DNA of 64,000 nt from Moniliophthora roreri (lineage: Eukaryota; Basidiomycota; Agaricomycetes; Agaricales; Marasmiaceae): NCBI GenBank assembly GCA_001466705.2, contig LATX02000249.1, positions 62,001-126,000 of the forward strand, written 5' to 3'. Shown piece after piece: positions 8,424 through 50,899 of the stretch (positions within the stretch are counted from its first letter, which is position 1; each line of letters begins with the position of its first letter). Made by a program: the position numbers and the translations under genes. The notes beneath the pieces were generated by a model. That model saw only the letters and a program-made list of their open reading frames with translations. It did no database searches and was not told the origin of the DNA.

Positions 8424-8424
8424 N

Positions 8425-18837: not shown

Positions 18838-19226
18838 GTGCATATATTGATGTTCTAGAGCCTTTTCCTGGCTAAAATCATGTTGATTCCTTGTAGATGC
18901 ACCAATTTCCTTTTTCTTGTCTGTATATCTTATATGCTCGCACCTGTAAATCACTTCACGGACACTACACACACCTCAATACATGTTTTCTTGATACATT
19001 GTTCTCCTTGTTTCTATTGTTTAGGGCTGCTATTCTGATAAGGTACGTTAATCTCTAACCTCCCATATCAATTCTGCGAGAAAAAAATTGCTACCAAACT
19101 TGCAGCTTAGCCACTTGAGTCCGCTCAGGAGCTGCTCAACCAACTGGCTCAGAGTGAGCCGTTTACCTGAGCAGCTCTACCTGGCTCGGCTCCGGTTTGG
19201 CTTGAGCTGAGCTGGTGGCACCCCTA

Positions 19227-21066
19227 GCTGTGTTACACCTATCTCAAGGATCAGAATCCATAATGTTTCACTCTCTCTAATAAATGCTTTCTGGACTATT
19301 TTTCCTGAATACAAATTATTACAATAGGCATGTATCTACCACAAATTCCCATCAGATTTTACTTATAATGCCAATCTAGACTGAAAACCAAAATGTCTAT
19401 AGATTACTAGATTCTTTTAATGTAGATATCTGAGCTTACTGTCATTTAACATATTGCTCACTTTGGCCCTTTACAACCTCTTCCTAAATTCAAACAGTGT
19501 CACATATGCTGTGTTCTAATCACTGCTGATACACTCTTGAAGTGTCTGTGTGTGTGTGTATTCTCACAAAGTTCACATTTTTACCAGTACAAAAGTGTAC
19601 ATTGAGACAAGTTTAATGCCACATGTTGCTAATAGTTGAACCATCAAGTCAAGAAGATAAGGAACTGCAGTAATATTACGCTAGTGCTTCAAGCTAGACC
19701 ATATTAGCCTCTAAGCCTGCCAGAACAGTGTGAAAGAACATTCTGGACAAGCTGAGGCATAATACAGCTTTGACCAAAAAGAGACATGATGACAGATTAC
19801 TCAGTCATTAACTCTAGAAGCCATTGAGACAAGAGATACCTCCAGACTCTCTTTGAGAATACTGTAGAAGAAAGGAAAAGCAGATAGCAGAGTAGAATTA
19901 TCTTACTTTATGCTTGAGGCATCTCTATGGTAGTGTATGACTCTGATATCACAGAAAGAAATATCTCTGATGTGACAATTCACTTGGATTATATTAACAG
20001 AGAATAATCAGAAAAGCACTCTAGAAAGAACACCTAAGGAATAATAGGTGCTAATGTTGTTTGAAGGTTTGGACAAAAACTGGCCTGCCACAGGTGGAGG
20101 CCAGATGCAGAGTTTGGACAAGAACAGTTGTCAGCACACTCAAATAGGTAGATATTGGAGCACTGCATCAGATTACAACAGCCATCTATATAGGACAATG
20201 TAGAACAAGAGCCACTCCCTGCTGCTACAACCACAGAGATTAGCATGCATGTTTAAGTAGAACTTGTAAATGAAAAATTAGAGCAGACTTTAGGAAGCAT
20301 AAAAATGTTCGGAAATAAGCTAATATGTCTGCTATTTGATACTATCAACTCCTAAGTATATATACATCTTCCTACTCAAATTTTGTAATTTGACATGTGC
20401 CAGAAACATTCAGATGGCTGAAATCAGACCTTTGGCAGTTTCTGGAATTTTTTTTCTGATTTTTAGTGATTTTTTAGAGGACATTGGGCCAGTTTAAACA
20501 AAAAGTAGTAAGAGGCTCTGAAAATGGGCATAAACAAAAACTAGCAATTTCTAAACAACATCAGCACCTATTATTAGAGGTCCTTAGTAACCCATCAAGA
20601 AGTCCAACAGCCACAAGCCAGTACCTCACATATAGCCTAGAAACCAGAAAACATTTCAAGGCCAGATCCAGTCTAAGTTCAGAGTTTGAGACCTTAAAAG
20701 CTGTATAATACCATATGCTATCTATATTCCAAGAGTCTTGAACCTTGTAACACTATGCTTGATGCTATAGACTGAGGTTCCAAGCCCTCCAGCCAAGCTA
20801 CAAGTGTTTTCTACAGGATACTGTACTATATGTACCACTTCTGTGACATAAAGACCATTCTGTATCATTACAACAAGAGGTCCACCTATCCATCCACCTT
20901 GTCTTGCTGCTACATTTAATCCTAGTGCTATAATCTATAATTGAGACAGATTGCCTGTGTCTCTTGTGTAGTTTTGGTCAAGTTCAGCATATCAAGTTAG
21001 TGCTTGTCTCCACTAGTATCTTAGAAAGAACAGTTTTCCTTCTATTGCTTGTGCTCTTTAGTCTTA
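19227..21066. other. AT-rich, CpG-poor stretch, no recognisable gene
   Basis: No conserved protein is seen on either strand. Frames of 70-75 residues at 20034-20246 (-) and 20484-20708 (+) resemble nothing known. There is a short GT run near 19549. The composition matches the other decayed transposon stretches. Confidence 0.45.
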
Positions 21067-22359
21067 GAGTTAAGTGACCCACATTGCAGTGCTCAGCAGG
21101 TGCCTTTATATATTACTTAATATATGTCCAAATGTGGAAGTAAGCACCCATGCAAATTTTCACCTTATTGCCATCTCCCATTCTCTTGATGCAGCAGTAC
21201 CAGTAATTGGCCATGTTTCAATGAAAATTCTGTTCTAAAACCAATTACTGACTTTAATAAACACTCTAGGTCCTCCAGACTGCTGAAAATCACTTCTGAG
21301 CTTATCTAATCCACCAAATCCATCCTTATCCAATGCATCTCAGTGATTATGCCTGCAGTGCCCCCAGGAAGAGGCCAAGGATGAAGAGCTCTATGGAATA
21401 TTGCTCTCAAAGTCCTCATGTGCTGTATTGGACACTGTTGACCCTGATTTCCACTATATTCATTGATATGATTGCTACATAGGCCTGAGAACAATGCAGT
21501 CAGCATGATATATGCAATTTCTCTTACAGAACCTCTTCCAGAAGTCTCTAGAACAGCAAACTCAACCTTTTTTGCTCCTGTAATGATGCTGAGCACCCTC
21601 ACCAACATCCCAAGCCTATACATCTCACACACCCATCACTATCACTCATGTCCTATACCAGCCCACTCATGACACATAGGAACATAGGAGGCAAAGTTAT
21701 AATGGAAGGGATGGTTATCATTAAGAGATGAGGCCAACAAAACCAGGCCTATGGTGCATCATACTGTCTGTAACTTTTGTCTACCTTTTCATAAACACCT
21801 AAGCAGTTAAATGACATCCAAACTATTTCCCTGCATCTCTCTCCACCCAGAAACTCTCCTAAAGCCATCTATACACCATAAAGTGCTGCTGGATATAGAC
21901 TGCCCACTGCTGCAATAATGACTTCAATTGACTCTAGACAATACCCGGAGACTGCTTGGTCAAACATCATTCACAGTTCATACCCCCTGTCAATGCCACT
22001 TCCTTGATGTGCCACTTGTTGCAAACACCTTTCTTACATCTTACCATCAACTTATCACCAGTGGATGGGGAACCCTTCTCACAAGAAATACTCATCTAGC
22101 AGAGACATGGAAGCTATTGAACAAGTGTGGGTCAAAATGATTCATTGTGTACTCATTTTATTCATAAATTGATCAATATACACTTAAACTACCACTTTGA
22201 CTCTCTTGGTGGCCCACTGACGACAGTAAATAAAGTTGAGCCAGAGCAACCTTATGCTAGGGTGTGGCTATGCCATGTGCCTTTCTAAATTAGGACATAT
22301 ATTAAGTAATATATAAAAAAAGGCACCCACTGAGCACTGCAATGTGGATTACTTAACTC
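21067..22359. mobile_element. 1.3 kb element with ~63 bp terminal inverted repeats
   Basis: The left end (21067-21129), beginning GAGTTAAGTGACCCACATTG, returns in inverse orientation at 22293-22359 as the sequence ending CAATGTGGATTACTTAACTC. The match runs for more than 60 bp with few differences and a small indel in a T-run. No transposase is visible inside. The minus-strand frame 21306-21632 (108 residues, hydrophobic stretches) may be a captured host fragment, but I cannot name it. No clear target duplication is visible, so the superfamily is undecided. Confidence 0.7.
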
Positions 22360-23195
22360 ACAGACATTATACAGCAATGTACATGCTTGCATTGTCACAG
22401 TGGGTATAAGTCTGCTTAGGGGAGACTATGTGCTCTTGATGTTAATACCTATGCTAGAACCTGTGAGGAGTCAGATTGGCAGTGTCCCTTGCATACATTG
22501 GGTATCTTGTATCTTAAAGGTATCTATTTTGGGGAATATACTCTTTTCTCACCTGAAGTTCCTCTCAAGCAAGTGTTCCTTTGAGTCTCAATCACCAGAT
22601 ATTTTTTTTTATTTTGAATGTATTACTTTACATGGTCTATACCTCAGTTTGAAGAGATAGTCATAAGCCTGTCCTCAAAGTCTTGTGTTATTGAGGTGCC
22701 TTGCTGACAGCCTTGCCTAATACTTTGATTGGTAATACATTGTATAGTTTGCAGCCAGTAGTATAGCTTGATGTATATACTACTGCAGTCCTTTATACTC
22801 TGAATCACTCTCAAAGCAACTCCTTAACTGGCTACTCAACTATTAGTAACACATGGTGTCAAGCTTGTCTTGTTGTACATATTGTACTGGTGAAATTGTA
22901 ATGTTTATAGGAATACACACCTGGTGATTTACAAAGTATATCAATGCTCAGCCACCAGATGATAGTGGTAGGTTTTCTGATGCCTCCTGGATTCAAAACA
23001 AAGAAGGAAATAGAATAAAGTAACATATGCATATAATAAAGCTTTAACCATGCAGCTGTATACAATCATAGTCAAAAAATAGTAAACAGCAATGAGACCT
23101 GCTCTAACATAGTACAAGTAACAAACTAAAGCCTTGACTGAAGACACTAATTAGTTTTAAGTAGTAAATTGTATAGATAGTAACACATACCTACA
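22360..23195. other. 3' flank of membrane gene A, no gene seen
   Basis: This AT-rich stretch follows the stop codon of gene A (which reads leftward). No recognisable protein or RNA gene is present. It probably contains the 3' untranslated region of gene A near 23.1-23.2 kb. Confidence 0.4.
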
Positions 23196-25141
23196 TTAGC
23201 CAAAATGAACAATATATGTTGTCCATTGCACAGTTTGATAGGCACTTGGAGGAAGGTCTCGGAGTGCCATTAGAGCAAGGATGATGAGGATCATTCTTGC
23301 AGTAATGTATGAGATAGTACCCAAAATGGTAGCAATATTGATGATCCAGTTCAACCAGTGGGGTAATCTCCTAATATTGTCCTTCTGGTCCTTCACTGCC
23401 TCCTCTGTCTTCTCTGCCTCCTCTGTCTTCTCTGTCTCCTCTGCCTTTGGAAATCCAGAAAGCCAATACACCAGTCCTATTGAGACTGGAGCAGCAGCTA
23501 CTGCAACAGCTGATATCTGCCAAAGCAACTGTTCAGTATGTGTTGGAGACTGAAAGCCCCATGGAATGCAGTGAATAGCACCAAATACACCTATAATAAT
23601 ATAAACAATAATGGAGGTGCAAGTTGAAACATTTTCTGCTCCTGTAGAGCAGAATCCCAATATCTGAACAAATCTTGAGGAGTTGTAGCTGTGGCGATAA
23701 ACCATAGTGACAATGCTAAGCAGAATAATAAAACAGAAAAGTACTAGAGAGAAGATGCCAATGTAAAGGACTAGAAGAAGGAGTGACAATGCAATCGCTA
23801 AAGTTGAAAAAGTTATTGAGAATATCATAATAATAAGTAATAGGAGAATGTAGAACAAAAAGATGAATGGTAGTGATACCACTGTTAATATGACCTTGGA
23901 TAAGGGAACTGGTCCATTTGTGGTTGCATTGACTACACCATCTGGATTAACTTGCTCCTCCCTGGCTGGTGTTTTCTTGAACCAAGTTATTTTTGATTTG
24001 GCTTTTTTGAGTTTGATTTTACACTCCTCATGCTGCCAATAGATACGGAGAGGATAGCAGACACGGAGTGGCTTCCTCAACCAGAAAATATAGGTTCCTA
24101 AGTTGAGAAGGACAAAGGCTGCTGTCACAATCTCAAGCCTGGTAATGGCAAGACCTTGTGCTGCACGGGTAATCACTTGTGATGTGAACCAAAGTGTCTG
24201 TCCAATGGCAATGGATTTGGAGATGATGTCACCATGGCTGAGATTGCCACTGATGTCGTCTTCATTCACATCAATGTACCCATTGACAATCAAAAACTCC
24301 AGAAGACATGTTGGTGGTGATTTTTGATCATCCTGCTATTAAAAATATCAGATAGCTGTAGAAACACCTGTGGTATGAAAGTATACCTTGATTTCATGAT
24401 TCCGGGCCTCAACATCAATTTCAGAATGTGCCCCTCTGGATTCTGGTGGGTCAACCACCTGTCTGCAATCTCTTCCTTCCCCATCCTGTATTTTTAGATG
24501 AGACAGCATAAGCTAATATGTTAGCATGGAAGAGTATGGGTATACCTTACTACCAAAAACTTCCTGAACTCTTTGGTGATACTCTTGAATCTGATGCCAA
24601 TACTTATTGGCACTTGGTTCATATCCCTTTACAGCATTGTCGTAAAGATATCCACAAAACTTGTCCCCATCATAGAGAGTGAAACCTCCCATGAGAACCA
24701 GAAATGCATGTGGCATACCCCACCCATACTCTAGCATCAAGTCTTTCAGCACCGGCTCAGAAAACAACTTTGTTACTCACTTTCATATTTCCTTGCAAGT
24801 TCTTGAGCAGAAGACCATTGCTGCATCGCTTGGAGGATGATGAGATCAGGTGCAATAAGTGCAACGACCATGTTGTTCAGTCTGGTGAACAACATCCCAG
24901 ATGAACCTGTGCCCTCTCGTGGGACATCAGGATGAATAGTAACCCAAGTACAGACCAATATGACTGAAAGACAGCTCCATATTATACCGGTGATTGTCCT
25001 ACAACCATTGATGTTGATGCATTCACCAGTGGTGGGATCGAACAGGGAATCAAAGGAATTGGAAGCAGTGAGGTTCTTGGCCATAGGCCAAGCAAGAGCG
25101 TAACGGAGAAGCATTGTGGGGTGACAATTTGAAGAACGCAT
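23196..25141 (-). CDS. Multi-spanning membrane protein, family copy A
   Basis: The gene reads leftward and appears intact across short introns. Exon 1 (25141 to about 24781) starts with a hydrophobic MLLRYALAWPMAKNLTAS and contains IIWSCLSVILVCTWVTIHP and a second membrane segment MVVALIAPDLIILQAM. After a 50 bp intron, exon 2 carries EYGWGMPHAFLVLMGGFTLY-like residues; two further introns lead to the last exon (24.34-23.2 kb) with LSHGDIISKSIAI, several membrane segments, FGAIHCIPWGFQ and the ending IVHFG. I recognise this as a large uncharacterised basidiomycete family whose function is unknown to me. A distinctive Glu/Lys/Ala-rich acidic run (EETEKTEEAEKTEEA) separates membrane segments. 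The start could be 25141 or the Met at 25114, or lie upstream. The body is CpG-starved, unlike its 5' flank. Confidence 0.75.
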
Positions 25142-27240
25142 CTTTACTCACTTATATGGTGTACACAAGACAACCTGCTTTTCAGCAAGGGTTTCGTTCC
25201 TTTGGCTAATTTGACAGCCAAACACAGCGGTCACAGCGGTGGTTGATCGGGCTGAATGGATCGGCAATGAAGAAGAATGGACTCACGAGTCATGAACTGT
25301 ACATTAGCTTCCTGCTCTACTCTGTAGCTTCCGTTTCAGATTCTGATCCCATGCAGCGCAGTGATGTGAATGAACCATGGAGAAGTTCGCTCGAAAGTTC
25401 ATTTATTTTCCCATGGCTCCGCATTGTTAGAATAGCGCATGCCAATTGAGCAAGCAGTGTACTTTGAACAGGATTATAGATGTGACACTCCCACCGATGA
25501 CTACAGCATAATATATAGACGAAAATGTGTTAGGTGTGGTCTTGCAGAGGTCTTTGAATTCTAACCTATCTGAACCATTGTCTATACGGTACATCTGGTA
25601 CTTAAGTGCGAGAAAACGGGAGGCACGTCTGTTGGGAAAAGGTTTACAAAAGTGTAGCTCCCTTCGACGACACGAGTACGCTGCCACGAGTGAGCAGAAT
25701 AAACAGATGTATAAACGTGCAAGAAGGGTGCTCCGCTTCGGTAATTTGTGTGGATTCGGCGTGGATGATCGCCTATCGATCATCGATCATACTCCCTCTC
25801 AACCTAAAAGCGTCGCTGAACTAGGTGTCAAGCGAAGATCCAACGTGGTGCTGGTGCGTGAAACGACTACCTCATGAGCTGCATGTAGACCAATGTATGC
25901 GAGTTAGGCTCTGTACATCCTACTGTACGTACGATTCAGCACCTATACCCGACGATTTTGGAATTTGGAATGTACGCTGTTCTAGAAGCAAGAGAAGGCT
26001 ACCATCGGTGATCAGGGCACCACCTCCGGGTTCCAGCGTTGTGTCTGCTTTGAAACGAGTTAACACCCGCAGTGACGTAGCTCACAAGAAGACATACCGC
26101 GCATCATGGAGACGGCTCGTTCTGCTCATGATTCTTGAACTATGGCCAGAAACATGCAGATAAACCCCAAGTCTGTTCGTAGCGTTCATTTTTATGTACA
26201 GCGTTGTCAGTCGAGATATCGGGAATGATATGGAAGAGGAATGCTCACCGGATAACAGGATAGCACGGCCTCGGTGAATATTCGCGATTGTTTGCCATCG
26301 ACGCTTGATTCCGTCATCATTACTAGTAGCTGGGGGCTCGCAACACGACCAAGAAAGTTGACAGAGTGACGGATTTGTGTAGGTGACCGTCAGTAGTGAT
26401 GTGGAGACTGCAAGCGCAATTATTATCAACGGGGTGCGTATGGGCCACACATAGTACAGGTCGTGAAAAGTAATGAATTCTCGTGGGGGCCTTGCTCAAG
26501 TTGACAGTAATTCCGATAATTTCCAGCAGGATTGAGTGCTTTGACGAGCACACGACGGAGAAGGGCGTGTAAATTGTCTCTGTGAAAAGGATCGCCATGT
26601 CAGCCAATGTCAAACAATGAATAATGACGTACCCAGGCAAGAACTCCTCAATGTGCGCACTGTAGAATCTCATATTCATCGGTCGTGAGGGTGAGCATTG
26701 TTAATCGCTGCACCGTGAAAATCTGAATACTAGGCTGATCCACCGTGGGTTGGCATGTAAGCGTCGGTCAAGCCCGGCTCAAACATGCGTGGCCCGAACG
26801 ATTGTGTCGCCTTAGTCAATAGCAGCTTGTAGAGCTCTTCACGTAGAAGAGGCTGTTTTCTTATGTGTGGATGAACTGTTCAGCTGGTGTAGAGGGGTCC
26901 TAATTTCTGGTTTAGTCAGTATGTATTACAGATGCTAGGGCTATGTGTCCGCACATTCATGATATCGTTCGGTCTTGCTGGAGCCGCCGCCGATATATCC
27001 CAAGGTGTTGGGAAGGCTTTCGAAGCGGGCATGATTGGACCTCTCCTTTTATCGTCTTCCTTTACAGAGATCACGTCGTTAGCACCGTTAACTCCAGCCG
27101 AACCATCTCCCCAAGCTCAGAACACCACTCGTCCTTCAACCCACCGACCAGTACTATCCTTGGGCCTCGAGAGAGCGTGTGAAACCAGGTGTCGATTGAG
27201 GAAGGTTCGGAGATGTACTCAGGACATCCAATGATTGTAT
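25142..27240. repeat. Left part of tandem block 1, decayed gene remains
   Basis: This CpG-normal stretch has a diverged relative at about 31.75-34.05 kb: for example GCTTTGAAACGAGTTAACAC near 26.05 kb against GCTTTGCAACGAGTCAGTAC near 32.77 kb, and further matches through 26.1-26.6 and 32.8-33.4 kb. Minus-strand frames at 26.1-26.7 kb include hydrophobic segments (WPIRTPLIIIALAVSTSLL) and may be exons of a former membrane or other protein, but the second copy does not keep them open. I cannot identify the ancestral gene. Part of the stretch next to 25.14 kb is the upstream region or 5' exon area of gene A. Confidence 0.55.
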
Positions 27241-27654
27241 GAGTTGGTATTGCGTTTGTGAACGACGATATCGAGGATACTGAGCCTACAGCTGCGTCGA
27301 TGAGCAAAGGAAACTTTTGGAACGGGCGCTTTTTTCGATGTTTGCCCATTGTTTGGACGCGTGGGCGGTCTAGACTCTCGGGCCCTTTTGCTTGCACGAC
27401 GCGTCGCTCCACAACAACCTGCAATTCTATTCTCGGGGAATGGCTGATTGGCTGATTCACGATATATGGTGAGATTTCTGCTACCTAGTCTCTCATTGGG
27501 CTCATTCGCTGGCTCCTCTGATAGCTTCCGATTTGATGTACTTGGCCGTTCGTATTCAAGTGCAGATGTTTAGGTCCTTCGAGGACTCTTGGATGGATAA
27601 TGAGCCAGAAAAGGGACTTTGAGGTAGGCCCTGTCACACTCTACTATTCCTTTC

Positions 27655-27990
27655 CAACTCACAGTGTCCCTTTACCGTACAGCTCTACAACTCGAAAGGC
27701 TTTCGGCTCTGATGTCCAATGACACTGTCCAGTCTACGAATCCTCCATCTTTCCCGTGTTCTCGCTTTCAACCTTATCCCTCTTACTCAAACCTCCACAC
27801 TGTCACACCCTCATCGAGGATTGCATGCTACGTGACACACCGAGTGACGTTGCTTCCGCTACCAGCGATTTCTCAGCCCGGATCTCAACGTGTTGCACAA
27901 AGGCTGGTCTGAAGCTGCTGCTCGTTTTCATGGAACGCATCCGGCGTTAGCTTCTGCGAACGTCGTGATCATCTGCCTGTACGATTCGGC
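27655..27990 (+). pseudogene. Decayed copy of a possible SGNH/GDSL-like hydrolase
   Basis: This is the block 1 version of the better-preserved frame at 34415-34882. The start, MSLYRTALQLERLSALM, is present, but the coding sequence is then spread over three frames with a deletion in the middle relative to block 2. Assignment to the GDSL type rests on the block 2 copy and is weak. No catalytic residues can be pointed to here. Confidence 0.35.
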
Positions 27991-28044
27991 TTAACGAGTG
28001 TGAGATAGGTGAAGAGGACTGGGGCGTACAGGTAGAGACGGAAT

Positions 28045-28287
28045 TAGTGATGTTGCGGGCTCGGTTCGGCTCAAAGCCCTGGGCTTAGGCCTGGTTTGAG
28101 AGGGCTCAGGCTCACCAAACATTGAGCCCCAGCCGTAGGCAGTGCCCGGCTTAGGCCAGAGCTTCAGAAATGCAAGCCCGAGCCTCGAGCCCGGTCAAAG
28201 CCCTACAGTAGGGCTCGGCTCGGCTTTGTGAGCCCTGGCTCGGTCAGGCCTGGCTTTAGGGCCCGAGCCGAGCCCCCAACATCACTA
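28045..28287. mobile_element. 243 bp hAT-like MITE, absent from the duplicate block
   Basis: The insertion begins TAGTGATGTTG and ends CAACATCACTA, with subterminal CGGGCTCGG/CCGAGCCGAG sequence in both orientations. The right flank is AGACGGAT (28288-28295) and the left flank AGACGGAAT (28036-28044), a near-perfect 8 bp duplication with one extra base. The duplicated block keeps the empty site AGACGGAT at 34935-34942 with matching sequence on both sides. It is GC-rich (many GGCTC motifs) and has no coding capacity. Confidence 0.85.
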
Positions 28288-28949
28288 AGACGGATATTGG
28301 ATGGTTGATAAAGACACGAACCGTCGAACTCTCTCCGCTACCTAGAACATCCACAAGTATCCGCCAGCACCGTGCGAAGCACCCCATCGCTACCATCACA
28401 TCCCTTCATCGTCCATACGCATACTTTGGAGACATGCTCAGCGCAAGATCATCTTCAGGCTCTTCTTCCAGCCACTGTACCCCACATTTCGATCCCACTT
28501 TTCTTCATAACGCTACGAAGCCAATCCGCTTCTTCGCCGTCACGTACAGATTCTACGTGGTAAACCATGCAGACAAACCACTCGCAGCCTTCACCCTGCA
28601 CCCCTCGTCGAACGCTTTTGGGTGCAGCTTAACAGGTTGAGGCATCGGAGGCGTATTTCGAGCCCGCTGGACACAGGCTGGCTTTTTTCCGCCGACTGGT
28701 TTTGGCGTCAACATTGTTCGCCTTGACCCTCGAGGTTGGACTACGCGAAACATCGCGACGGATAGCGCACGCTATTAGTATCGATTTATGGTCGAGTAGA
28801 AGGCGAAGAGCTGGTGAGATCTATTTCACCCGCAACACACATCTCTCCAATCTACTCCAGACTAAACGCTTGCTGGGGGACAGAATGCCCTTCTCTCTTT
28901 CTAACCCTACCCTGATGATAACACCCTCACCGAACGCGCTGCTCGAACA

Positions 28950-29300
28950 TAGATTTCACTTATGATGCCGTGTCCAACATTCCTGGTAGTTCATCCTGTG
29001 TACGCCGAGTTGTCGCCGACCTTGTCGGAAATCCTATCGAGTTTACCCAAAGTTCATCTCAGGAAAGTCTAAACGACGCAAAAGAGTCGGGCAGTGCTGA
29101 GCTGTCGGTTTTGACGCTGCATCTAGGATCGGCGTCTCTTGAAGGAAGTCGGACTCGATTGTTAATAGCTTATGTCGACGGAATGGAGGTACAATGACTC
29201 GAGACCAAAGCCTTTCTCTCCCTCAACACTTTCTTCCAGGTGCTGACAAGTTGTGCTCGTGGGAGTCGACATGGGCTTTTCCTCTCCAAAACGTATAATT
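28950..29300 (+). pseudogene. Unrecognised exon remnant, block 1 copy
   Basis: The frame to 29197 includes FTYDAVSNIPG-like residues (start of frame partly lost), VRRVVADLVGNPIEFTQ, and SLNDAKESGSAELSVLTL, followed by a plausible intron with donor GTACAATG (around 29190) and acceptor near 29239. The block 2 copy at 35818-36190 keeps the same frame, so this was once a coding exon. The sequence after the intron is shifted relative to block 2. I do not know the family. Confidence 0.4.
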
Positions 29301-29882
29301 AGTGGATCCGTTTTTATGATCCTATGGATGTGACGGCTAGGAATAGGGTAATCAAGCCGTTTGTGTCACTACAATGTGAATAATTGTCCGCATATTCTAA
29401 AGTTTGCGGGTGAGCGTTTGCTGCTAATAGTATTTCGAGCTGTGCCGTGGCTATTCTTTCATAGGTGGAGATGATTAGGGAGATTAAGCTCGTGGTATAT
29501 TACCTTCGTTCTGCCCCCGAATTCGCTGATGCAATGCTCGGACCGTGAGTCCCTACTTTGTCGCTTCCTGATGTAGCTGACATCGTTTTTGCAGTCAAGT
29601 GGTGCCTGGATAACTGCTAAACAAGACCCCCTCAATGCAATTCCCGGAGGTGGCAGATATCGAAACGGAGCTGACAGCTTATAAATAAGTAACAATACAA
29701 ACTATAATACAGCAAGGTAGCAGACCAGTGCAAGCAATATGATATACTCCAATCAAAAAGAGAAGAACTGCATACAATAAATAAGATGGACTGATATGCA
29801 TACTGATGAATAGGTTCCCATTGGCTAGGCCTGAGATCTAATCAGATTCATGGCAGTGAGTAAAATATAACACATACTAGGA

Positions 29883-31745
29883 TCAACCAATGTGAGGAAG
29901 CAATATTGTCCATTGCACAGTTTGATATCCACTTGGAGGCAGATCTCGCAGTGCTGTCAGAGCAAGCACTATAAGGATGGTTCGTGCAGCAGCGTATAAG
30001 CTAGGGAGCAGAATGGTAAAGACCACAAGCAATATGCTTAGCCATGTAGGCATATTCCAGTTGCGGTCCTTTTTTGTCTTCATAGCCCAATGCAGAGACC
30101 CTGTTGGGATTGGTCCAGCAGCAACTGCAATTGCAGATATATGCCAAAGCAGCTGTTCAGTGTATGTTGGAAATTGGAATGCCCAAGGGATACAGTGGAT
30201 AGCACCAAATAAAGCTGAAATGATGTACATAGCAGCATAAAGATGGAGTGGACTATCTTTTAGCCCTGTAAAAAACCGAATCTTGGATCCATCTGAATCT
30301 GCCTTGTCAGCAAGTATGTCATTGCTCATAACCAAAAATTGCAAGACTGCAACTAGTGGAAAGAGCATTAGTGCAACCACTAGCTCTGAGATGCTGTTTA
30401 TTGACTTCTTCCAGACATACTTGAAGATGGCAGCAATTCCTCCCCAAATTGCACCCAAGCAGCCATTTGTAGACTCCATAGTCCTGGAGTTGCATTTCCA
30501 CTTTTTTTGGCACCAATAAACATGAACAGGATGTTGCACACGAAGTGGCTTATTCCACCACAGAAAGTAGGTCCCAAAATTGAGCAGGGCAAATGCCACT
30601 GTCACAATCTCAAGTTCTGTGATGGCAAGTCCTTCAGCCCAGCGACCAATAACTTGAAGTAGGAACCAAGTAGTCTGTATAATGGCAATGGATTTGGAGA
30701 TAATGTCACCATGGCTGAGATTGTCTTTGATTTCATCTTCAGTTATTGTGATGTGACCATGCACAATAAGATATTCCAGAAGACATGTTGTTTCAGGTAG
30801 TTCATTGTCCTTAAGGCATAAATATGGGTACATAGCACATTTAAAGTACAAGGCACAAGGAATGGACTTACTGAAACTACTACTTTATCAGACTCAGGCA
30901 TTGGAGCATGTTCCTCATTCTTTTCTTGTTCCTATGATTTACAATTAGTGCTTAATAATGTGAGATTAAGGTCTCAAAGCCTACTGCAATGTTTGAGTCA
31001 GGGATATTCAAATGCTCAGGCCACCCAACAGAAACATCCCTTTTTTGGCTGTTTCTGGTAATCTTCCTCCAGTACTCTTCATGAGCCTCTTTCCAAACAG
31101 GCCAATCCCCCAAACCTAATTCCTTGCCTTCCCAGAGATAACCACAAAACTCGTCTTCATCATAGAGAGCAAAGCCTCCCATAAGGAGTAGAAAAGCATG
31201 GGGCATTCCCCAGCCATACTCTATGGTAGAATTTTTAGCTTCAGCCCAGAATTAAAAGAATGTTACATACTTTTGTATTTCTTTGCAATCCTCTTGGCTG
31301 AAAATCTCTGCCTCATTGCCCACATAATAATCAATTCCGGTGCAAGCAGTGCAACAAGCATGAGTTGCAGGTTTTGGTAGACCACCACTGCCCGATGCTT
31401 CCCTACTTCTGGGACATTGGGATGAATGGCCACCCATATACAAATGAATACAACAGATAAACAGCTGTATAGGATCCCAGGAACAGTCCTACACCTATTG
31501 ATGTCAACACATTTGCCAGTTGTGGGATCAAATAAGTCAGAGTCGGAAGAGTTGGTAGCAGCTAGGTTTTTTGCAAGAGGCAAAGCAACAGCGTAGAGGA
31601 AGAGCATTGGGGAAATAACAATATGAGGAGTGGATTGTTTTAGCCGTTTATATGCATTGGCTGTTCTACATGCTTCACCTTCTTTGGCTACTTTAACTAC
31701 TTTGGTAGTCAAACGAAGTTCAATAGCAGTGAATATTAAGATCAA
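29883..31745 (-). CDS. Multi-spanning membrane protein, family copy B
   Basis: The minus-strand gene looks intact. Exon 1 (31745 to about 31271) has LLTTKV-type N-terminal residues, LFLYAVALPLAKNL, then ILYSCLSVVFICIWVAIHP and LVALLAPELIIMWAM. A 50 bp intron (31221-31270) joins an exon with YGWGMPHAFLLLMGGFALY; two more short introns follow (near 30.95 and 30.8 kb). The last exon begins DNELPETTCLLEYLI, contains LSHGDIISKSIAI, FGAIHCIPWAFQFPT and ALTALRDLPPSGYQ, and ends LLPHIG at 29883. A further 5' exon may exist, since CTTTCAG lies just upstream of 31745. About 15 CpGs occur over the whole 2 kb body, against about 20 in the next 420 bp upstream. Confidence 0.78.
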
Positions 31746-34055
31746 ATAGAACCCTGAAAGAGAAGAGCGTACGCTTGGGAGTCGGCTTTACACTGCCGTT
31801 GTATAGCTTCCGTCGCAGATCCTGATTTCTTACAGCATGCCACATGTTGAATATGAAATGATCAAAAAAACCTCTCGGTGCCTTGAAAACGGGACATCGG
31901 TTAGAGTTGTAGCTCGACAAAGTCATCAAATAAGTTGCTGAAAAGTAGTTCTTGCCAAGGCCACAAGAAAACGACAGGCGCGTTCATCATGATAGCATTT
32001 TTCGCCTCCTTTTGATAATGTCAGTATTCTGCTGTGATTGGTCAGAATGAATTGAATCGTGACAGGGAAGAGGATAAACGTGCGAGCAGGGTGGCCCACT
32101 GCCTACCTGCGCCACCATTTAACTTTATGTTGATGGCAATTCGTATGGAGTCGGTGTGAATCATCGCCACCTAAAGGCGTCGTGTTTGAGTAATGATATT
32201 GTGCAAATTTAACGGTGTACCTTGACCTAGGCCCAAGAGATTGCGCATTATCCAGAACTGCTAAAAAGATACCAGATAATTGCTAAGTTCAAAGCGACGA
32301 AAGCGACCACAAGGCAGGGGCTGCGGAGACCCATTTCCGTCCAGAATGGGTTGCCACTCGTCAAGATGTCCTCCATCATGCCGAAACCCCTCCCCCCCCT
32401 TGATCGTTCTCGCGAAACCGGGTATTGGGAAACTGCTTCTGAATGATAGAGTTTTGACTGCAACGTGAACATCAACTTTACCTGTAACGAGACGCAACGA
32501 AATTAACCTATCATGAGTACGACTTGAAAGGTCGAACATGAGGCCTTCGCAGTGTCAATGGTGATAGCTTCCATGAAAGCCTAGATCAAGGGAACAACTC
32601 ACTCTCATTTCGCCTCACAAGCTGCAGACTGTGATAAGTAGAAATGTCCTCAAACCTCCGAGTTATGTACATGGTTCAATAGTTATGTCCGACAGTTCTG
32701 GAATACGCGCTACCTTAGAAGAATATTGGGTCTCCACCTCCCACGTTATCTCTGCCGCTCTCTGCAGTCGCTTTGCAACGAGTCAGTACCTGCAGTCATA
32801 CAACTCGCAAGAAAGACATCGTATCCTTTTCATGAGGACAACTCCTTCCGTTCGGGGACCATTGAACTGCGGACGGAAACATGTAGATAGACGCCGATTC
32901 TGCGTCCATCTCCTGTGCAATGTTGTCAGTCAAAATCTTGAAAATATCGTCAGAGGAATACTCACTGGATAACAAGATGGTTACCTTTCACTCCTCTCGC
33001 TCCGGCGAACAGCCGCAATGATTCGAGGTAGACACTCCATTCCGTCGGTTCACTAAAGGCCGGCCATGCAACTAGGCAGACGGACAACCTACCAAATCTG
33101 TAAACGTGATCGTCAGAAGCGATGTGGAGACTGCGCAGATATAATCACTTCTCACCGGTTGATTATCACGGATTGGGTATGAGCCATAGTGCATCGTTCG
33201 TGTCAGGAAGAAGGTTGATTCTTGTGGGAGTTCTCGCTCTTGAAAGTGATTTCGTTGGTTTTAGGAAGATCGAGCGCTGTGGCAGGCGCACAAAGGTGTA
33301 GTCGTGTCAGTTGATCCTCAATGTCAAACGATAGATGGTGATGTACACCTCAACGGACTGGATCTCATCTTCAACGGTTGAGGATTGAACGCTGCACTGT
33401 GAAGTCCTAAGTCAGTATTGAGCTGCGAGACCCGGGGCTAGCCGTATCGGACCAGGAATGTTGTATATCCCGCTCAGTTTCGGACATATTCTGCGAAAAT
33501 GTATCAGTATCGAGTCTTACTCAAGCATACGAAATAGTATTCACAATGACGAGTAGCCGTTCACCATACGTAACGCAAACGCGCTAACCTGAACAGTTGC
33601 TTGGACTGCTCCTTCTTATGCAGAGAAGGCTGGTTTCTTGTAGCATGAATAAGCCCTTCAACTGGGCTTAGTGCTGTCAAATTGTCCTAGCTATCGATTA
33701 ATCAGTATACATCGCAGATGCAATGGTTATGGAACCGCACGTTCGTGATCTCATCCTGTCCTCGACAACGTATACTAGGTATCATCAGGAAGGCGTTTGA
33801 AGCGAGCACAGAAATGATCGCTCCTTCCCCGTTCTTCATCGCCTTCCTCTAGGGACATTTTGCCTCCAACGCCCTTAAACGTGACCTAATTCAATCCATC
33901 TCCTCAAACTCCTCAGGATACCATCCGTCCTTCAATCCACTTGGCACTGACCTTGGGCCTCGAGAGAGGATGTGAACCTAGTTGTCGATTGAGAAGAGTT
34001 CGGGGATGTACTCGGAGCATCCAGTGATTATATGGGTTGGTACTGCGTGTGTGGA
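31746..34055. repeat. Left part of tandem block 2, decayed
   Basis: This is the diverged counterpart of 25.2-27.2 kb, and is CpG-rich. The first ~200 bp may include an upstream exon of gene B: a minus frame at 31720-31929 contains WHAVRNQDLRRKLYNG, and a related stretch is found upstream of gene A near 25.35 kb (QNLKRKLQS in one frame). The remainder shows only broken frames. No intact gene is recognisable. Confidence 0.5.
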
Positions 34056-34414
34056 TGGGAGTATCGAGGAGCCTGAGCCCACAGCTGCGTCGATGAGCAA
34101 AGGTTATTTTCGGAACGGGCGCTTTTTTCGATGTTTGCCCATTGTTTGGACGCGTGGGCGGTCTAGACTCTTGGGCCCTTTTGCTTGCACGGCGCGTCGC
34201 TCCACAACAACCTGCAATCTTATTCTCGGGGAATGGCTGATTGGCTGATTCACGATATATGGTGAGATTTCTGCTACCTAGTCTCTCCTCGGGCTCACGA
34301 GCTGGTTCCTCTAATAGCTTCCGATTTGATGTACTTGGCCGTTCGTATTCAAGTGTAGATGTTTAGGTCTTTCGAGGACTCTTGGATGGATAATAATGAG
34401 CCAGAAAAGGGACT

Positions 34415-34882
34415 TTGAGGTGGACTCTGTCACTCTCTGCTATGTTCTTCCAATTCATAATGTCCCTTTACCGTACAGCTCTACAACTCGAAAGGCTTTC
34501 GGCTCTAATGCCCAATGACACTGTCCAGTCCACGAATACTCCATCTTTCCCGCGTTCGAACGAAACAACCTGTCGAAACAGTCCCCTGCGCACGTATTTC
34601 CTGAAGTTCGGATCTTTCGCAACACACTATAAACTCGCTTTCAACCTTATCCCTCTCACTCAAACCCCCCGTCACACCCTCGTCGAGGATTGCATACTAC
34701 TTGACACGCTGAGCGACGATGCTTCCGCTACCAGCAATTTCTCGGCCCAAATCTCAGACATGCGCCATAGGAGGAATGTCTTGCACAAAGGCTTGTCTGA
34801 GACCGCTGCTCGTTTTCATGACACGCATCTGGCGCTAGCTTTTGCGAAAGTCGTGATCATCTGCCTGAACGATTCGGCTTAA
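34415..34882 (+). pseudogene. Possible SGNH/GDSL-like hydrolase fragment
   Basis: A 155-residue open frame contains FNLIPLTQTPRHTLVEDC, then SNFSAQISDMRHRRNVL and a C-terminal LALAFAKVVIICLNDSA. The order LPPL-x-x-TP, then W/R-N at the start of a helix, then a hydrophobic strand and VLD-like residues resembles the middle of fungal GDSL esterases, but the N-terminal GDS block and the C-terminal D-x-x-H are not visible. It may be a fragment of a longer gene whose other exons have decayed. The same region is more damaged at 27.66 kb and 41.87 kb. The identification is tentative. Confidence 0.35.
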
Positions 34883-35817
34883 CGAGCGTGAATTGATTAT
34901 GGGATATGTGAAGAGGATTGGGCTGTACATGTAGAGACGGATACTGGATTGGTTGTCGAACCCTCTCCACTACTCAGAACATCCACAAGCATCCGCCAGC
35001 ACCATGCGAAGCACCCACCGCTATCATCACACGCCTTCATCATCCGTAGGCGTACTTTGGGTATTTGTAGACATGCTCAGCGCAGGATCGTCTTCAGGCT
35101 CTTCTTCCAGCCACTGTACCCCAAATCACCCAACGGCATCTCAATCCCACTTTTCTCCATAATGCTACGAAGCCAATCTGCTTCTTCGCCGTTACGTGGC
35201 AAACCATGCAGACAAATCACTCGCAGCCTTCACTCTGCACTCCTCGTCGAATGCTTTTGGGTGCAGTGCACCCAAAGCTTCTCAACAGGTTGAGGCATCG
35301 GGGGCGTATTTCGAGTCTGCTGGACACAAGCTGGCTTTTTGCCGCCGACTGGTTTCGGAGCCAACGTTGTTCGTCTTGACTCTCAGAATTGGACTACGCG
35401 AAACATCGTGACGGCTAGCGCACGCTATTAGTATCGGTTTACGATCGAGGAGGGATAAGCGGATGCTAGGTCATGTGATAGAAGAATTAGCCTTACAGTG
35501 AAGCTACAGGCCACGACAGGCTCGCCTCGGAACTCTAATGTTGGCTTTGGTGTCAGCTGGTACCGAGATAGCTCGGTGGTCCGTATTGCTTCGATCAGCG
35601 CACTCATCGGAGAAGGGCGCATTCGAGGAACGTTAACCATGTCCTGTGTTGCTGGCGTTAGGTCGAGGAAGGATGGTCACAGTCGAGTAGAAGGCGAAGA
35701 GCTGGTGAGAGACCTCTTTCACTCTCGACACACATCTCTCTAATCTACCCCAGACTAGACGCTTTCTGAGAGACAGAATGTCCTTCTCTCCTGTAAAACC
35801 CTCACCGAACGCGCTGC

Positions 35818-36208
35818 TCAAGCCCAGATTTCACCTACGAAGCCGTATCTAACATTCCTAGTAGTTCATCTCGTGTACGCCAAGTTATCACCAACCTTTT
35901 CGGAAATCCTATCGAGTTTACTCGGGATTCATCTCAGGAAAGTCTAAACGACGCAAAAGAGTCAGATAGTACCGAGCTGTCGGTTTTGACGCCGGATCTA
36001 GGATCGGCATCTCTTGAAGGAAGTTGGTTTCGATGTTTGGTACCTTATGTCGGCGGAATGGAGGTACGATGATTCGAGAACAAAGCCTTTCTCTCTCTCA
36101 ACTCTTTCTTCCAGGTGCTGACAAGTTTGCGCTCGTACGAGTTGATATGGGATTTTCCTCCATCAGCGAATTCGTTTTATGATCATACGGATGTGATGGC
36201 TAAGTGAT
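35818..36208 (+). pseudogene. Unrecognised exon pair, block 2 copy
   Basis: The frame reads DFTYEAVSNIPSSSSRVRQV, NLFGNPIEFTRDSSQESL, SLEGSWFRCLVPYVGGME and ends in a good donor (GTACGATG); an acceptor (TTCTTCCAG) lies about 50 bp on, after which two frames are open, one ending near 36208. The block 1 copy shares frame and splice sites. I do not recognise the domain. Because both copies keep the frame over about 80 codons, it was probably coding until recently. Confidence 0.4.
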
Positions 36209-36685
36209 AGGTTAAAGTCGGTGAGCGAGTGTTTGCTGCTAACGGTACCTCGAGCCGTGCCGTGGCTATTCTCTCGCAGGTGGAGATAGTTAGGGAGATT
36301 AAGCTCGAGCGAAATATTACCTTTGTTCTGCTCCCAAATTCGCTGATGCAATGCTCGAACCGTGAGTCCCTACTTTGTCGCTTCATGATGTAGTTGATGT
36401 CGTCTTCGCAGTCAGGAGGTGCCCGGATAATTGGTAAACAAGACCTCCTCGATGCAATCCCCGGGAGTGGCAGATATTGAAACTGAGTCGACGGTTCAGA
36501 AATAAGTAACGATACATGTCTTTCAATGGATTGCATGACGATACAAACTACAATACAGTAAGGTAGTGGACCAGCGCGAGCAATATGATACACTCCAAGT
36601 AAAAAGAGAATAGAGTCGCATACGATAGATAATATGGACTGACATGTATACTGATGAATAGGTTCCTGCTGGCTAGGCCTGAGAT

Positions 36686-38607
36686 CTAACCAACGTGTGG
36701 AATGAATCGCGTCCATTGAATCGCTTGAAGGGCACTATAAGGTAATGCCCTCAACGTCGCGAACGCAACAGCAATTGTGGCGAATCTAGCGACAATGTAT
36801 ACGCCGGACAAGCAGAACAGCACTATGTTGGCATAGTCTTCTGGCTTTGTGTTAAATTTTTTGTAGCTTATGTTATGAAATGGAAACATTGCGAGTGGTA
36901 CCAGCATCAACGTGATCGTCGATGCACGCCATACAGTGCTCTCAATATCAGTTGGGAAGGCGGCATTCCAGGGAATAAAATGGACTATTGCGAAGACGAG
37001 TCCAGCGATATACACCCCCTTTCCAGTGGGCAATGGTTTGGGAGGTGACGGCTGGATAGAAGGTGACGGTTGGGTTGAAGGTGCTGATTGGGTTGGAGGT
37101 GCTGACTGGATTGGAGGTACTGATTGGGTTGGAGGTGGTGATCGGGTTGGAGGTGGTGATCGGGTTGGAGGTGGTGATCGGGTTGGAGGTGACGGCGGCC
37201 GTATTCCAATGTCGAGTAAGGAACCCGCGCGATAGCAGGGCAGCAGCGCTTCCCTGAAAACGCGAATGGGGAAGACGATGAAGGGTATCCAATTGAAGTA
37301 ATTTCGGGGGGACTTCAAGTTGTTATCATTGTAATATTTGAAGCTTTCATTAACGTCTGACACCAGATACGTCCATACTGCACCAAGTTCCTCCCGAACT
37401 GTTTCGGTCCACGACGGCGGCTTTGTCGATTCGGGTGCAATAAGTTTAGGCTTCAGTCTACTCCGTGTCACACGAACGGCTTGGCTCACACGAAGAGGTT
37501 TGTGCCACCAGTAGTAGTAGGATGTTCCGAGAATGGCTGCATGTGCGAGCGTGATGACCTCAATATCCGTGAGGACAAGACCTTCTGCCATCCGAGCAAT
37601 GCACTGCAGGATGAACCAGCCAACTTCAATGATGGCTATGGTTTTGGACAAGAAATCCCCTCCACCCTTCGCTATAGCTTCGTCCTCTGTAATGTCAATG
37701 AAGCCTTCCGCAAGCAGGAGTTCAAGGTAACATGTCGGTCCTGCTGGATGCGCGACATCTCTCTAAGGAAAGGTTTTAGAATGATCCCAGAGTACTTGTG
37801 AGAAAATGACGAACCTTATCATTTTGGATGTCTTTGACTTGTGCTTGACTCCGTTTGAAAAAGGAAATAATTACGGAGCGGAGAGATTTGACGAGCCAGG
37901 TAAGATGTTGGCTCTGATGAGCTTGATCTCCCAAGTCTTGATGAGTTGCAAAATGTCCTTCGGCTTGCATGTGCTCTAATTCCCGTCGAACATCGGCAGA
38001 ACTAATGTGTCTACAATAAGAGAAGGTAACGGAATGAGAATGAGAATGACTGACAGAGGGTCTTCTTCAAGTTTATCATAGTCCCACAGGATACCCAAGC
38101 ATTTATCTGGTTTGTATTGCTCTGGCTCACATCGACCTAATTCTTGGCCATATAGAGCATAACCCCCCATAATAGCTAAATACGCATGTGCCTTGGTCCA
38201 CCCAGTGTACTCTGCAATCATTAGTGAGCAATAACCGTAAGTATTCCAATTAGAAACTTACCTTTGTATTTTTTCCAAACAATCTGCGAAGCCTCATGTT
38301 GTCGCATAGACCACAACATGATCAATTCGGGGGCGATGATTGCAAGAAGGGTCAACGACGCGTGTTTCAGCCAGACGACCGTGGATTGATCATCAGGATG
38401 AGGAACATTCGGGTGAACAGCGACCCAGGAGCAGATGAAAATAACTGAGGCACAAGTCCAGAGTATGTCACTAAGGCTTCGGCACTGCAGAAGGTTGTCG
38501 CATTGAGCTATAGATGCGTCAGAGGCATCCAGAGCAGCGAGGGTTGCATTAAACTCCGCGACAGAGCGAGTAATAATAGGACGAGCGAGGGCATAAAGGA
38601 GAAGCAT
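36686..38607 (-). CDS. Multi-spanning membrane protein, family copy C, with Pro-rich insert
   Basis: This is an intact-looking, CpG-normal member of the family. Exon 1 (38607 to about 38262) runs MLLLYALARPIITRSV, CRSLSDILWTCASVIFICSW and LLAIIAPELIMLWSM. Exon 2 starts EYTGWTKAHAYLAIMGGYAL; a short intron near 38.0-38.05 kb leads to SADVRRELEHMQAEGHF and an amphipathic region, and another near 37.77 kb to the last exon with ITEDEAIAKGGGDFLSK, membrane segments, AIVHFIPWNAAFPTD and the end RFIPHVG at 36686. Between membrane segments it has a long Pro/Thr/Ser repeat (about 50 residues of PPPTRS/PPPTQS type) that A and B lack; A has an acidic Glu/Lys run at a comparable place. Sequence immediately upstream of 38607 may belong to a 5' exon. 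Function unknown. Confidence 0.78.
37049..37194. repeat. 18 bp minisatellite coding a Pro-rich repeat in gene C
   Basis: About eight imperfect copies of an 18 bp unit (plus strand GGTTGGAGGTGGTGATCG) lie in frame within the last exon of gene C. On the coding strand each unit gives PPPTRS or a variant (PPPTQS, PPIQSA, PSTQPS). Three central units are identical, which suggests recent slippage or unequal exchange. Copy number could vary between strains without breaking the frame. Confidence 0.85.
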
Positions 38608-42525: not shown

Positions 42526-43959
42526 ACTACACGAGTCATTGCATATGAGCGTATGGCATAGCAAGGTGATAGTTCAGGGAGAGTACGGCGGATGTTGGGT
42601 TGTGCGACAAGGAAGAATGTTACAGGCCACGGCTCACCTCAGCATCACCTCACAGTCCAGCCGTAAGGCACATGTACCCGCACCATTGTTTCCCGTCACT
42701 TTCTTTCACGGTTCTCTTCTGTTGGACTTAATACCAGAAGCATGTGCATTTGGCATACAGCTGGCTAGCGTAGAGATAGTGTATCTTCACTTAGGATGTG
42801 GATGTGCAGTAAACTGGAATACATCTGAATCAAAATTCGTTCCCCTTGCCTTGTTGGCTTTCAAGTGGAAATGAGGAAGCTGCGCAGGAGCACAAGGATA
42901 GCTGTGGAGGAAAGGTGCTTTCAGTGGGGGCTCATATTCAATAGGTGGGCATCCCTAGTGTTGCCGGAAGTAGCTTGTGTATCAGATGGCGAAGAGCATT
43001 GCCCATCGTAATGGAAGGCCATCAGCAAGATTCCATTTTGATTGCTGGATTGCCAATTGTCCTGCCAAAATTTCCGAATCATCAACACTCTGCTGCATGC
43101 TTAAAGCCAAGTATCTGTCAGAGAGCCATGGAGAGTCATTGTAAAATAACTTGGCAGTAGATACATACTGAAGCTCTGAAGGAGACATTAATTTACACAG
43201 ACTTTGCAGTTGCTGGCTGATTATCAGATTGCAGAAAGCAGGTACCTGGGAGGTTGAGTTGCCAGATTGCTGATTGTTGTGGATGGTTCCAAATCTCTAG
43301 AAATGCTGATGGTATTCCTCAATATCAGATAGATCTGTGTTGACAGGTTCACAGCTGATCATCTGCCACCCTAGTGCTCAGCCTTCATGATCTGGGTCAC
43401 ACTACAGATAGAATCAATCTTTCTAGCCAACAAACATGGAGGTTTCCATAGAACCAGATACATCAGAGTTCTTGGAGCTCAAAGTGCCATTGACCAGGAT
43501 CATGTCAAATGGGATTCCTGGGTAAATTTCCATGTTTCATATTTGTGTCTAGGAGGGATAATTTCAGGTGAGCCTGCAAGAGGCTAGTCAAAGACCAAAT
43601 GATAAGGGTAGGTAGTACACACCAGTGGGGTGTTTTGGGAAGTATAGTATATGCAGTTTGATGCAGGTGATTATCAGTACATCAACTATCAGGTTCAAGA
43701 TTGGTGTTAGGACACATGCCTTGGCAAAATCAAGCAGAAAGGATATAAAACTGGTGTGTATGCTGCAGTATGTGCTCCCACCACAAACTACTTTCAATGT
43801 TGTTCACTGTCCTCAGGGTAATATTGGTTTTCTCAAACACCATTCTTACACAGTCATTGCAGTTTCCAGCCTACTGGGTAATATTGATCCTAATGCTATC
43901 AAGCTGCTTGACATTCTTATCTTTAGTGCAGAAAAGTAATGTCACATATGGACATCAGG
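42526..43959. other. Transition from CpG-normal to CpG-poor DNA, no gene identified
   Basis: The first ~500 bp is CpG-normal; from about 43.05 kb CpG becomes rare. The latter half may include the missing N-terminal exons of the GH76-like gene (a plus-strand frame at 43625-43939 is open for 104 residues), but I cannot align them to a signal peptide or the expected start. Confidence 0.35.
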
Positions 43960-46214: not shown

Positions 46215-46481
46215 CCTAGTACAATAATGCATTGCTGTTCATTTGAATTCAGCCTAAGAAATTAGGTGCCAAATAGACAACAATTTCTGGTGCAACAAAT
46301 GCCAGAAGTGTTAGATACAGCTTCCCTTTACCATCTAGATCTGTTCATACCTCATCTTATTTATCTGTTTACTTCATGTATGCAGGGTGTGCACTGGTCA
46401 CAGTAAGTACTAGCTTATAAAGGCTCTGACTACAAAGACCAGTTTTGAGTGGTAAAAACCAGTGATTAGAATGCACCTGTG

Positions 46482-49820: not shown

Positions 49821-49825
49821 CTGTA

Positions 49826-50520: not shown

Positions 50521-50899
50521 GTTGGCATTCTAAGTGCAGCAACTCTGATCATGTCGATCCACACTTGCACCACAAACTGAGTTAGACTTTTGGAGGTTAT
50601 CTTTTGGGTAGTTTTCCACTAGTCTTATCTTAGACAAATTACCATCATTACTAGTTAAGGGTGGTTAAGAGCAGTTATAGGGGATATTTTGGGTTTTTGG
50701 TGCTGAAGCTGTTCTCAGGGGTTTAGATATGTTTAATGAGCTTAACATGAGTTATGTGTAGTTGTGAACAGGAATTTGGAGAGGAAACTGTTGTCATTGT
50801 GACTCCAAGGAATGACATTTGCTTGTTGATTGAGTGATGCACCCTCATATGAGTGAAGACCACCACAATTGTTTTGTTTATTTTGTTCAACAAACTTCA

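What the first reader, a model, noticed from the sequence alone, without database searches (positions are those of the whole stretch)
23196..38607. Sharp-edged CpG depletion covering gene bodies A and B but not paralogue C
Gene B (29.70-31.74 kb) has about 15 CpGs by hand count in 2 kb, while the next 420 bp upstream has about 20. Gene A is similar, with the edge at 25.14 kb. The paralogue C has normal CpG. In the 3' flank, B and C align and C's CpGs are TpG or CpA in B (for example CAGCGCGAGC in C against CAGTGCAAGC in B; GTCGCATACGATAG against CTGCATACAATAA), beginning near 29.69 kb. The frames of A and B remain open, so this is not simple decay. It suggests that methylation is placed precisely on the transcribed part of some family members and drives CpG loss there.
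Basis: partly seen in the sequence, partly recalled or inferred. Interest (0 to 1): 0.8.

Follow-up and report, generated by a model that had tools for sequence, protein, structure and literature searches.

The report
CpG-poor gene bodies in fungal family
In a cacao fungus, about half the examined members of a large membrane-protein gene family have lost nearly all CpG letter pairs inside the gene but usually not in front of it, the scar expected from long-lasting DNA methylation, and yet many of the CpGs that spell conserved amino acids have been kept.

Summary
B is CpG-depleted from about 29,675 to 31,750 (o/e 0.16) between spacers at 0.96-0.99. A has a sharp 5' edge near 25,225; C is normal (0.90). 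The genome is Moniliophthora roreri.

The pattern is family-wide. Of 43 copies examined, 22 are depleted (0.00-0.37) and 21 normal (0.71-1.05), with none between. Pooled o/e in 20 depleted copies is 0.71 upstream, 0.42 in exon 1, 0.10 in the body and 0.12 over the first 200 bp past the stop. Sampled P450 (0 of 16) and hydrophobin (0 of 20) pieces show none.

CpGs removable silently are almost gone from depleted copies (1-5% of the normal level). CpGs encoding arginine are kept at 43% in open copies and 13% in broken ones, so the protein was under selection while CpGs were lost. Losses continued after duplication. B's 3' edge lies inside homology, and RIP signatures are absent. DNMT5 and DNMT1-RFD genes are present.

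Best reading: long-term, copy-specific CpG methylation of gene bodies with unmethylated 5' ends, on genes that still function, perhaps only sometimes. Methylation and expression were not measured.

The parts
23196..25114 (-). Gene A, 584 aa by the model used here, introns 24731-24780, 24486-24545, 24333-24386; CpG-depleted, frame open
19200..25225 (.). CpG-depleted block that ends at the 5' end of gene A
29883..31607 (-). Gene B, 519 aa, introns 31221-31270, 30932-30984, 30810-30871; identical over its full length to Moror_5993 of M. roreri MCA 2997
29675..31750 (.). Isolated CpG-depleted segment over gene B, from about 143 bp before the ATG to about 208 bp past the stop
29690..29900 (.). 3' flank and last bases of B, aligned to C: no CpG in B, six in C, five of them TG/CA in B
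36686..38607 (-). Gene C, 591 aa, introns 38212-38261, 38011-38054, 37763-37814; normal CpG
25225..29675 (.). Spacer S1, normal CpG; pieces of 27103-29844 match 33896-36692 at 76-88% identity
31750..36685 (.). Spacer S2, normal CpG, partly a segmental duplicate of S1
46485..47815 (-). Fourth family copy, a pseudogene with many stops
43100..56300 (.). Nearly CpG-free block (o/e 0.02) that contains the pseudogene

Best explanation
About half the examined members of this multicopy membrane-protein family have carried CpG methylation over the gene body for a long evolutionary time, with the 5' end (promoter and part of exon 1) mostly unmethylated. Methylated CpGs mutated to TpG/CpA until few remained besides those needed for conserved arginines. 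The state belongs to the single copy: it persisted as one subfamily spread over five contigs, and at least five changes of state are needed on the family tree. Shown here: depletion, its edges, its gene-body profile, its bimodality, the post-duplication losses and the selection signature. Inferred: that 5mC is the cause, kept by the DNMT5 and DNMT1-RFD enzymes that the genome encodes; and that these genes are expressed at least sometimes, because permanently silent genes would not keep CpG-encoded arginines. The likeliest role is a conditional or low-expression state of family members, not permanent silencing.
For: Bimodal o/e in 43 copies: 22 at 0.00-0.37, 21 at 0.71-1.05. Profile of 20 depleted copies, pooled o/e with bootstrap 95%: upstream 0.71 (0.58-0.82), exon 1 0.42 (0.32-0.53), body 0.10 (0.08-0.12), first 200 bp past the stop 0.12 (0.03-0.24; 18 copies). 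Frame test beyond exon 1, CpG per 1000 codons in 13 open depleted / 6 broken depleted / 21 normal copies: positions 1-2 (arginine) 16.5 / 5.0 / 38.4; positions 2-3 0.4 / 0.5 / 46.7; positions 3-1 4.3 / 4.1 / 79.3; open against normal Fisher p 2e-28, open against broken at positions 1-2 p 3e-5 (copies are related, so p values are too small). Most retained arginine CpGs sit at B residues 301, 487, 499, 267 and 307, which are arginine in 20-21 of 21 normal copies; R487 is invariant and R267 and R499 are nearly invariant in 67 homologues. Post-duplication loss: of 52 CpG columns of the nearest normal copy beyond exon 1, 21 show losses after the subfamily radiated, 15 a uniform loss and 16 other; with three other normal copies as reference, 24 of 55, 29 of 61 and 26 of 67. 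Controls: 0 of 16 P450 pieces (of 115 matches) and 0 of 20 hydrophobin pieces (of 54) depleted. DNMT5: match to 7r76 at 1e-81; two DNA-methylase matches lie 2-3 kb from RFD matches, on C1 and C45, the C45 one matching DNMT1 structures.
Against: No methylation or expression data. 10 of 18 depleted copies stay depleted well past the stop and 6 of 20 are depleted upstream, which looks like ordinary heterochromatin. 18 of the 22 depleted copies form one clade, so independent cases are few. 6 of 19 scored depleted copies are broken, and the window's fourth copy is a wreck. dN/dS does not separate open (median 0.54) from broken (0.50) pairs. 5 of 20 fixed-position 600-bp stretches of the genome are also depleted, so the state itself is common here. 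Codons were placed by local tblastn alignments, which read into introns at their ends; in the same count even normal copies show 16 stops (8 TGA, 5 TAG, 3 TAA).
Confidence: 0.72

Rival explanations
1. Ordinary transposon-type heterochromatin: these copies are silenced, methylation spreads over them from repeats or recognises them as repeats, and they are on their way to becoming pseudogenes.
For: A continues into a depleted block; the fourth copy is dead; 10 of 18 copies are depleted far past the stop; the big depleted clade is repeat-like, its members 82-90% identical to their nearest other copy, with one identical pair; 6 of 19 are broken; 5 of 20 fixed-position stretches are depleted.
Against: B lies between spacers of about 4.5 kb with normal CpG; normal copies sit between depleted ones on C6 and C115; 14 of 20 depleted copies have upstream o/e of 0.5 or more; arginine CpGs are kept in open copies and largely lost in broken ones.
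Confidence: 0.17
2. A duplication-triggered mutation process (RIP, or methylation like MIP) acted on duplicated gene bodies; edges mark where homology stops.
For: The depleted clade is multicopy, 82-90% identical to the nearest other copy.
Against: The 3' edge at B lies about 170 bp inside a B/C homologous segment, and the duplicated spacers S1/S2 (up to 94% identical in a 300-bp bin) have normal CpG. A, B and the C148:175574 copy are at most 77% identical to any copy held, while three C94 copies at 91-98% are normal, though these may be too young. TA is not raised and TCG is not preferred. Selection kept the proteins. M. roreri is described as asexual (PMC10468315, abstract passage).
Confidence: 0.06
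3. Fossil methylation: gene bodies were methylated in the past; the state is over and only the CpG scar remains.
For: CpG o/e integrates over long times; some CpG columns were lost uniformly in the subfamily (15 of 52).
Against: Other columns were lost after the radiation (21 of 52), and few silent-site CpGs are left in open copies, so the process went on for a long time.
Confidence: 0.05

Closest known systems
Gene-body CG methylation of animals and plants, read through CpG o/e in invertebrates (bimodality recalled; use of CpG depletion for gene-body methylation in Cnidaria: PMC8857923, title and start of abstract in the listing)
   Same: CpG loss over gene bodies with a protected 5' end; genes remain functional; two classes of genes
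   Different: Here it was found in one multicopy family of a mushroom-type fungus and not in the P450 and hydrophobin samples; fungi lack DNMT3 and most lack gene-body methylation (PMC7862722, passages)
Methylated gene bodies in fungi: Pleurotus (PMC6627472, passages), Puccinia striiformis allele-specific expression (PMC12129025, passages), U. reesii and M. robertsii (as cited in PMC7862722, passages)
   Same: CpG methylation over some fungal genes, linked to lower expression in Pleurotus and Puccinia
   Different: Those are direct methylation data; in Pleurotus only one ortholog pair shared the gene-body state between two species. Here the state is old enough to have removed nearly all silent CpGs, and selection on the protein is shown
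TE-like methylation of coding DNA in maize pollen genes, teM (PMC11436724, passages)
   Same: Functional genes bearing repeat-like methylation in coding DNA; shows how selection can act on genes that are silent most of the time
   Different: Plant system with CHG methylation and DNA glycosylases; no counterpart was shown here
RIP / MIP
   Same: C-to-T change or methylation in duplicated fungal DNA
   Different: The edge at B, sequence context and selection do not fit

Membership tests
Gene-body CpG methylation | CpG-specific loss with TpG/CpA gain | tested here: met
   Depleted copies CG 0.18, TG 1.41, CA 1.57, TA 0.62; normal copies 0.93, 1.10, 1.20, 0.72
Gene-body CpG methylation | 5' end spared, body affected | tested here: met
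   Pooled o/e upstream 0.71, exon 1 0.42, body 0.10 in 20 copies; 6 of 20 have upstream o/e below 0.5
Gene-body CpG methylation | Depletion ends near the transcript end | tested here: inconclusive
   o/e at +500 to +1400 past the stop is 0.5 or more in 8 of 18 copies; transcript ends unknown
Gene-body CpG methylation | Genes are functional | tested here: met
   Arginine CpGs retained in open copies, largely lost in broken ones; shows selection in the past, not present expression
Gene-body CpG methylation | 5mC present at the CpGs | not testable with these tools
   No methylation data held
Gene-body CpG methylation | Genes are transcribed | not testable with these tools
   No RNA data held
RIP | C-to-T changes in a preferred context (CpA, raising TpA, or TCG in some basidiomycetes; contexts recalled) | tested here: not met
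   TA not raised; share of TCG among the remaining CpGs 0.33 against 0.32 in normal copies (ACG 0.15 against 0.24, CCG 0.31 against 0.21)
RIP | Affects the whole duplicated segment | tested here: not met
   Duplicated spacers S1/S2 have normal CpG; the 3' edge at B lies inside homology; edges of other copies were not tested this way
Transposon-type heterochromatin | Promoter covered and coding capacity decaying | tested here: inconclusive
   14 of 20 have upstream o/e of 0.5 or more; 13 of 19 scored copies open; but 6 broken, and long 3' extensions

The most novel reading that the evidence does not exclude
A fungus keeps a membrane-protein repertoire in two heritable states, with gene-body CpG methylation acting as a long-lived, copy-by-copy switch. 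The marked copies are still used and selected, so the methylation must be opened at some time or place, or does not block transcription at all, as in animal-type gene-body methylation, which is held to be largely lost in fungi.
Probability: 0.35. Interest if true: 0.75.

Novelty: new variant of a known kind. Interest (0 to 1): 0.58.

Why it matters
Most fungi are said to lack gene-body methylation (PMC7862722, passages), perhaps because of its mutational cost to coding sequence (PMC13297926, passages). This family shows that cost in sequence: silent CpGs are nearly gone, and the remaining ones are mostly held by selection on arginine codons, copy by copy, with unmarked paralogues as a built-in control. 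The frame-by-frame CpG count may give a simple way to tell 'methylated but used' genes from 'methylated and dead' ones in a genome sequence, without methylation data.

Full report
What was checked. The window is G000:C148:62001-126000 of a 59.4-Mb, 154-contig genome. Gene B's protein is 100% identical over 519 aa to Moror_5993 of Moniliophthora roreri MCA 2997, and other hits of M. roreri lie on a 395,491-bp contig (WG66 tags), the length of C115 here, so the organism is M. roreri. CpG o/e is 0.21 in A, 0.16 in B, 0.90 in C, and 0.96 and 0.99 in the two spacers. Change points fall at about 25,225 (A, 5'), 29,675 (B, 3') and 31,750 (B, 5'); none of 500 bin shuffles matched any of them. B's ATG is at 31,607 and its stop ends at 29,883, so depletion starts about 143 bp before the start codon and ends about 208 bp after the stop. 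A is depleted on its 3' side as well, in one block from about 19,200.

The B/C comparison. Spacers S1 and S2 are partly segmental duplicates, and the homology runs through the 3' edge of B's depletion. In 163 aligned columns from 29,690 to 29,900, B has no CpG and C has six, five of them TG/CA in B; on the other side, bins of similar identity share 8 to 21 CpGs in most bins and hold private CpGs on both sides. The edge is therefore not a junction between two kinds of sequence. No third copy of this flank was found in the loci held, so polarity rests on the neighbouring bins.

The family. A six-frame protein search with B gave 111 exon matches in this genome, in clusters on C6, C94, C115, C148, C18, C130, C121 and others. 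I could assemble 43 copies; about five more were not fetched. Their o/e over the gene is bimodal: 22 from 0.00 to 0.37 and 21 from 0.71 to 1.05. Copies of both kinds alternate within clusters: C115 10 depleted and 1 normal, C6 4 and 4, C148 4 and 3; C94 has 5 normal and C18 4 normal. In controls from the same genome, 0 of 16 P450 pieces (of 115 matches), 0 of 20 hydrophobin pieces (of 54) and 0 of 4 reverse-transcriptase pieces (of 150) were below 0.6, while 5 of 20 fixed-position 600-bp stretches were below 0.4. The genome thus has a sizeable depleted compartment, and this family is unusual among the three gene families sampled (22 of 43 against 0 of 36 P450 and hydrophobin pieces, Fisher p 7e-8, not corrected for relatedness). 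The control pieces were picked by me from high-scoring matches.

Profile. In 20 depleted copies (the pseudogene of the window and one fragment left out), pooled o/e is 0.71 upstream, 0.42 in exon 1, 0.10 in the body, 0.12 in the first 200 bp past the stop and 0.50 at 500-1400 bp past it (the last two in 18 copies). Six copies, B among them, are depleted islands with both far flanks at 0.5 or more. One copy, C148:175574-177375, has normal CpG through exon 1 (0.95) and is depleted after it (0.14); its sister on the tree, C148:180215, is normal. This is the form of gene-body methylation with a protected 5' end, with a 3' end less well defined.

Selection. CpGs that span codon positions 2-3 or 3-1 can be lost without changing the protein; those at positions 1-2 encode arginine and their direct decay products change it. 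Beyond exon 1, the 13 open depleted copies keep 0.4 and 4.3 of the silent kinds per 1000 codons against 46.7 and 79.3 in 21 normal copies, but 16.5 of the arginine kind against 38.4. In all 13 open copies the arginine CpGs outnumber the silent ones; in the 6 broken copies this holds for 2 (per-copy counts). Broken copies have lost arginine CpGs to 5.0 per 1000 with the same silent level. The most often kept CpGs sit at five residues that are arginine in 20-21 of 21 normal copies, three of which are among the invariant or nearly invariant columns of 67 homologues. 'Broken' means stops inside the C-terminal exon match, plus C121:4913, whose match is interrupted. Left out of this count: the window's pseudogene, one fragment, and one of two identical tandem copies. 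So the protein was needed while CpGs were being lost. A dN/dS comparison was less informative: medians 0.54 for open pairs and 0.50 for broken pairs.

History. On a protein tree of the 43 copies, at least 5 changes of state are needed: one clade of 18 copies on C115, C6, C145, C121 and C89 is wholly depleted, and A, B, the pseudogene (a long branch, place unsure) and C148:175574 stand apart. Within 16 copies of that clade, 152 dinucleotide columns hold both TG and CA variants, against 18-81 for seven comparison dinucleotides, although only 69 columns still hold a CG. Against the nearest normal copy, 21 of 52 CpG columns beyond exon 1 were lost after the clade radiated, 15 show a uniform loss and 16 are other; three other normal copies give 24 of 55, 29 of 61 and 26 of 67. 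The process therefore started early and continued in the dispersed copies.

Cause. TpG and CpA are raised, TpA is not, and TCG is not preferred, as expected for deamination of 5-methylcytosine at CpG and not for known RIP contexts (recalled). The genome encodes a DNMT5 (7r76, 1e-81), two DNA-methylase exons on C1 and C45 each with an RFD match 2-3 kb away (DNMT1-like by structure match on C45) and a third DNMT1-like exon on C87; a fifth match on C128 was not identified. [quoted passage not shown] PMC13297926, passages). In two Pleurotus species 163 and 365 genes have methylated bodies, and highly expressed genes tend to be less methylated (PMC6627472, passages); in Puccinia striiformis methylation around the start codon is higher on the lower-expressed allele of secretome genes (PMC12129025, passages). 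How marked genes can stay under selection is known from maize, where pollen genes with repeat-like methylation in coding DNA are silent elsewhere and active in pollen (PMC11436724, passages).

What is shown and what is not. Shown: the depletion, its edges and profile, the two classes, the retained arginine CpGs and the continued loss after duplication. Inferred: present or past 5mC, expression at some time, and the switch-like role. The protein is a predicted multi-helix, probably membrane-spanning, protein of unknown function, with relatives across mushroom-forming fungi. Relatedness among copies makes the p values above optimistic; the per-copy and open/broken contrasts carry the argument.

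Noticed in passing
window 28040-28300: A GC-rich insert in spacer S1 that is not aligned in S2 and seems, by eye, to have inverted ends, like a small transposon.
   Followed up: no
window 7491-9356: Direct repeat of about 933 bp at 96.9% identity; an open frame just left of it weakly matches a copia-type gag family, below the Pfam cut-off.
   Followed up: no
window 53628-55053: Tandem array with a unit of about 151 bp inside the CpG-free block.
   Followed up: no
window 37040-37200: Gene C carries a proline-rich repeat insert (SPPPTR-like units) that A and B lack.
   Followed up: no
L062 (C148:175534-178875): A family copy whose exon 1 has normal CpG while the rest is depleted, with the change near the exon 1 boundary.
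   Followed up: partly
L021/L022 (C115:259946-261619 and 261929-263602): Two gene copies in tandem that are identical over the 1,674-bp gene body, both depleted.
   Followed up: partly
G000 fixed-position stretches L094-L113: 5 of 20 have CpG o/e under 0.4 (two with no CpG at all), so the genome has a large CpG-poor compartment.
   Followed up: partly
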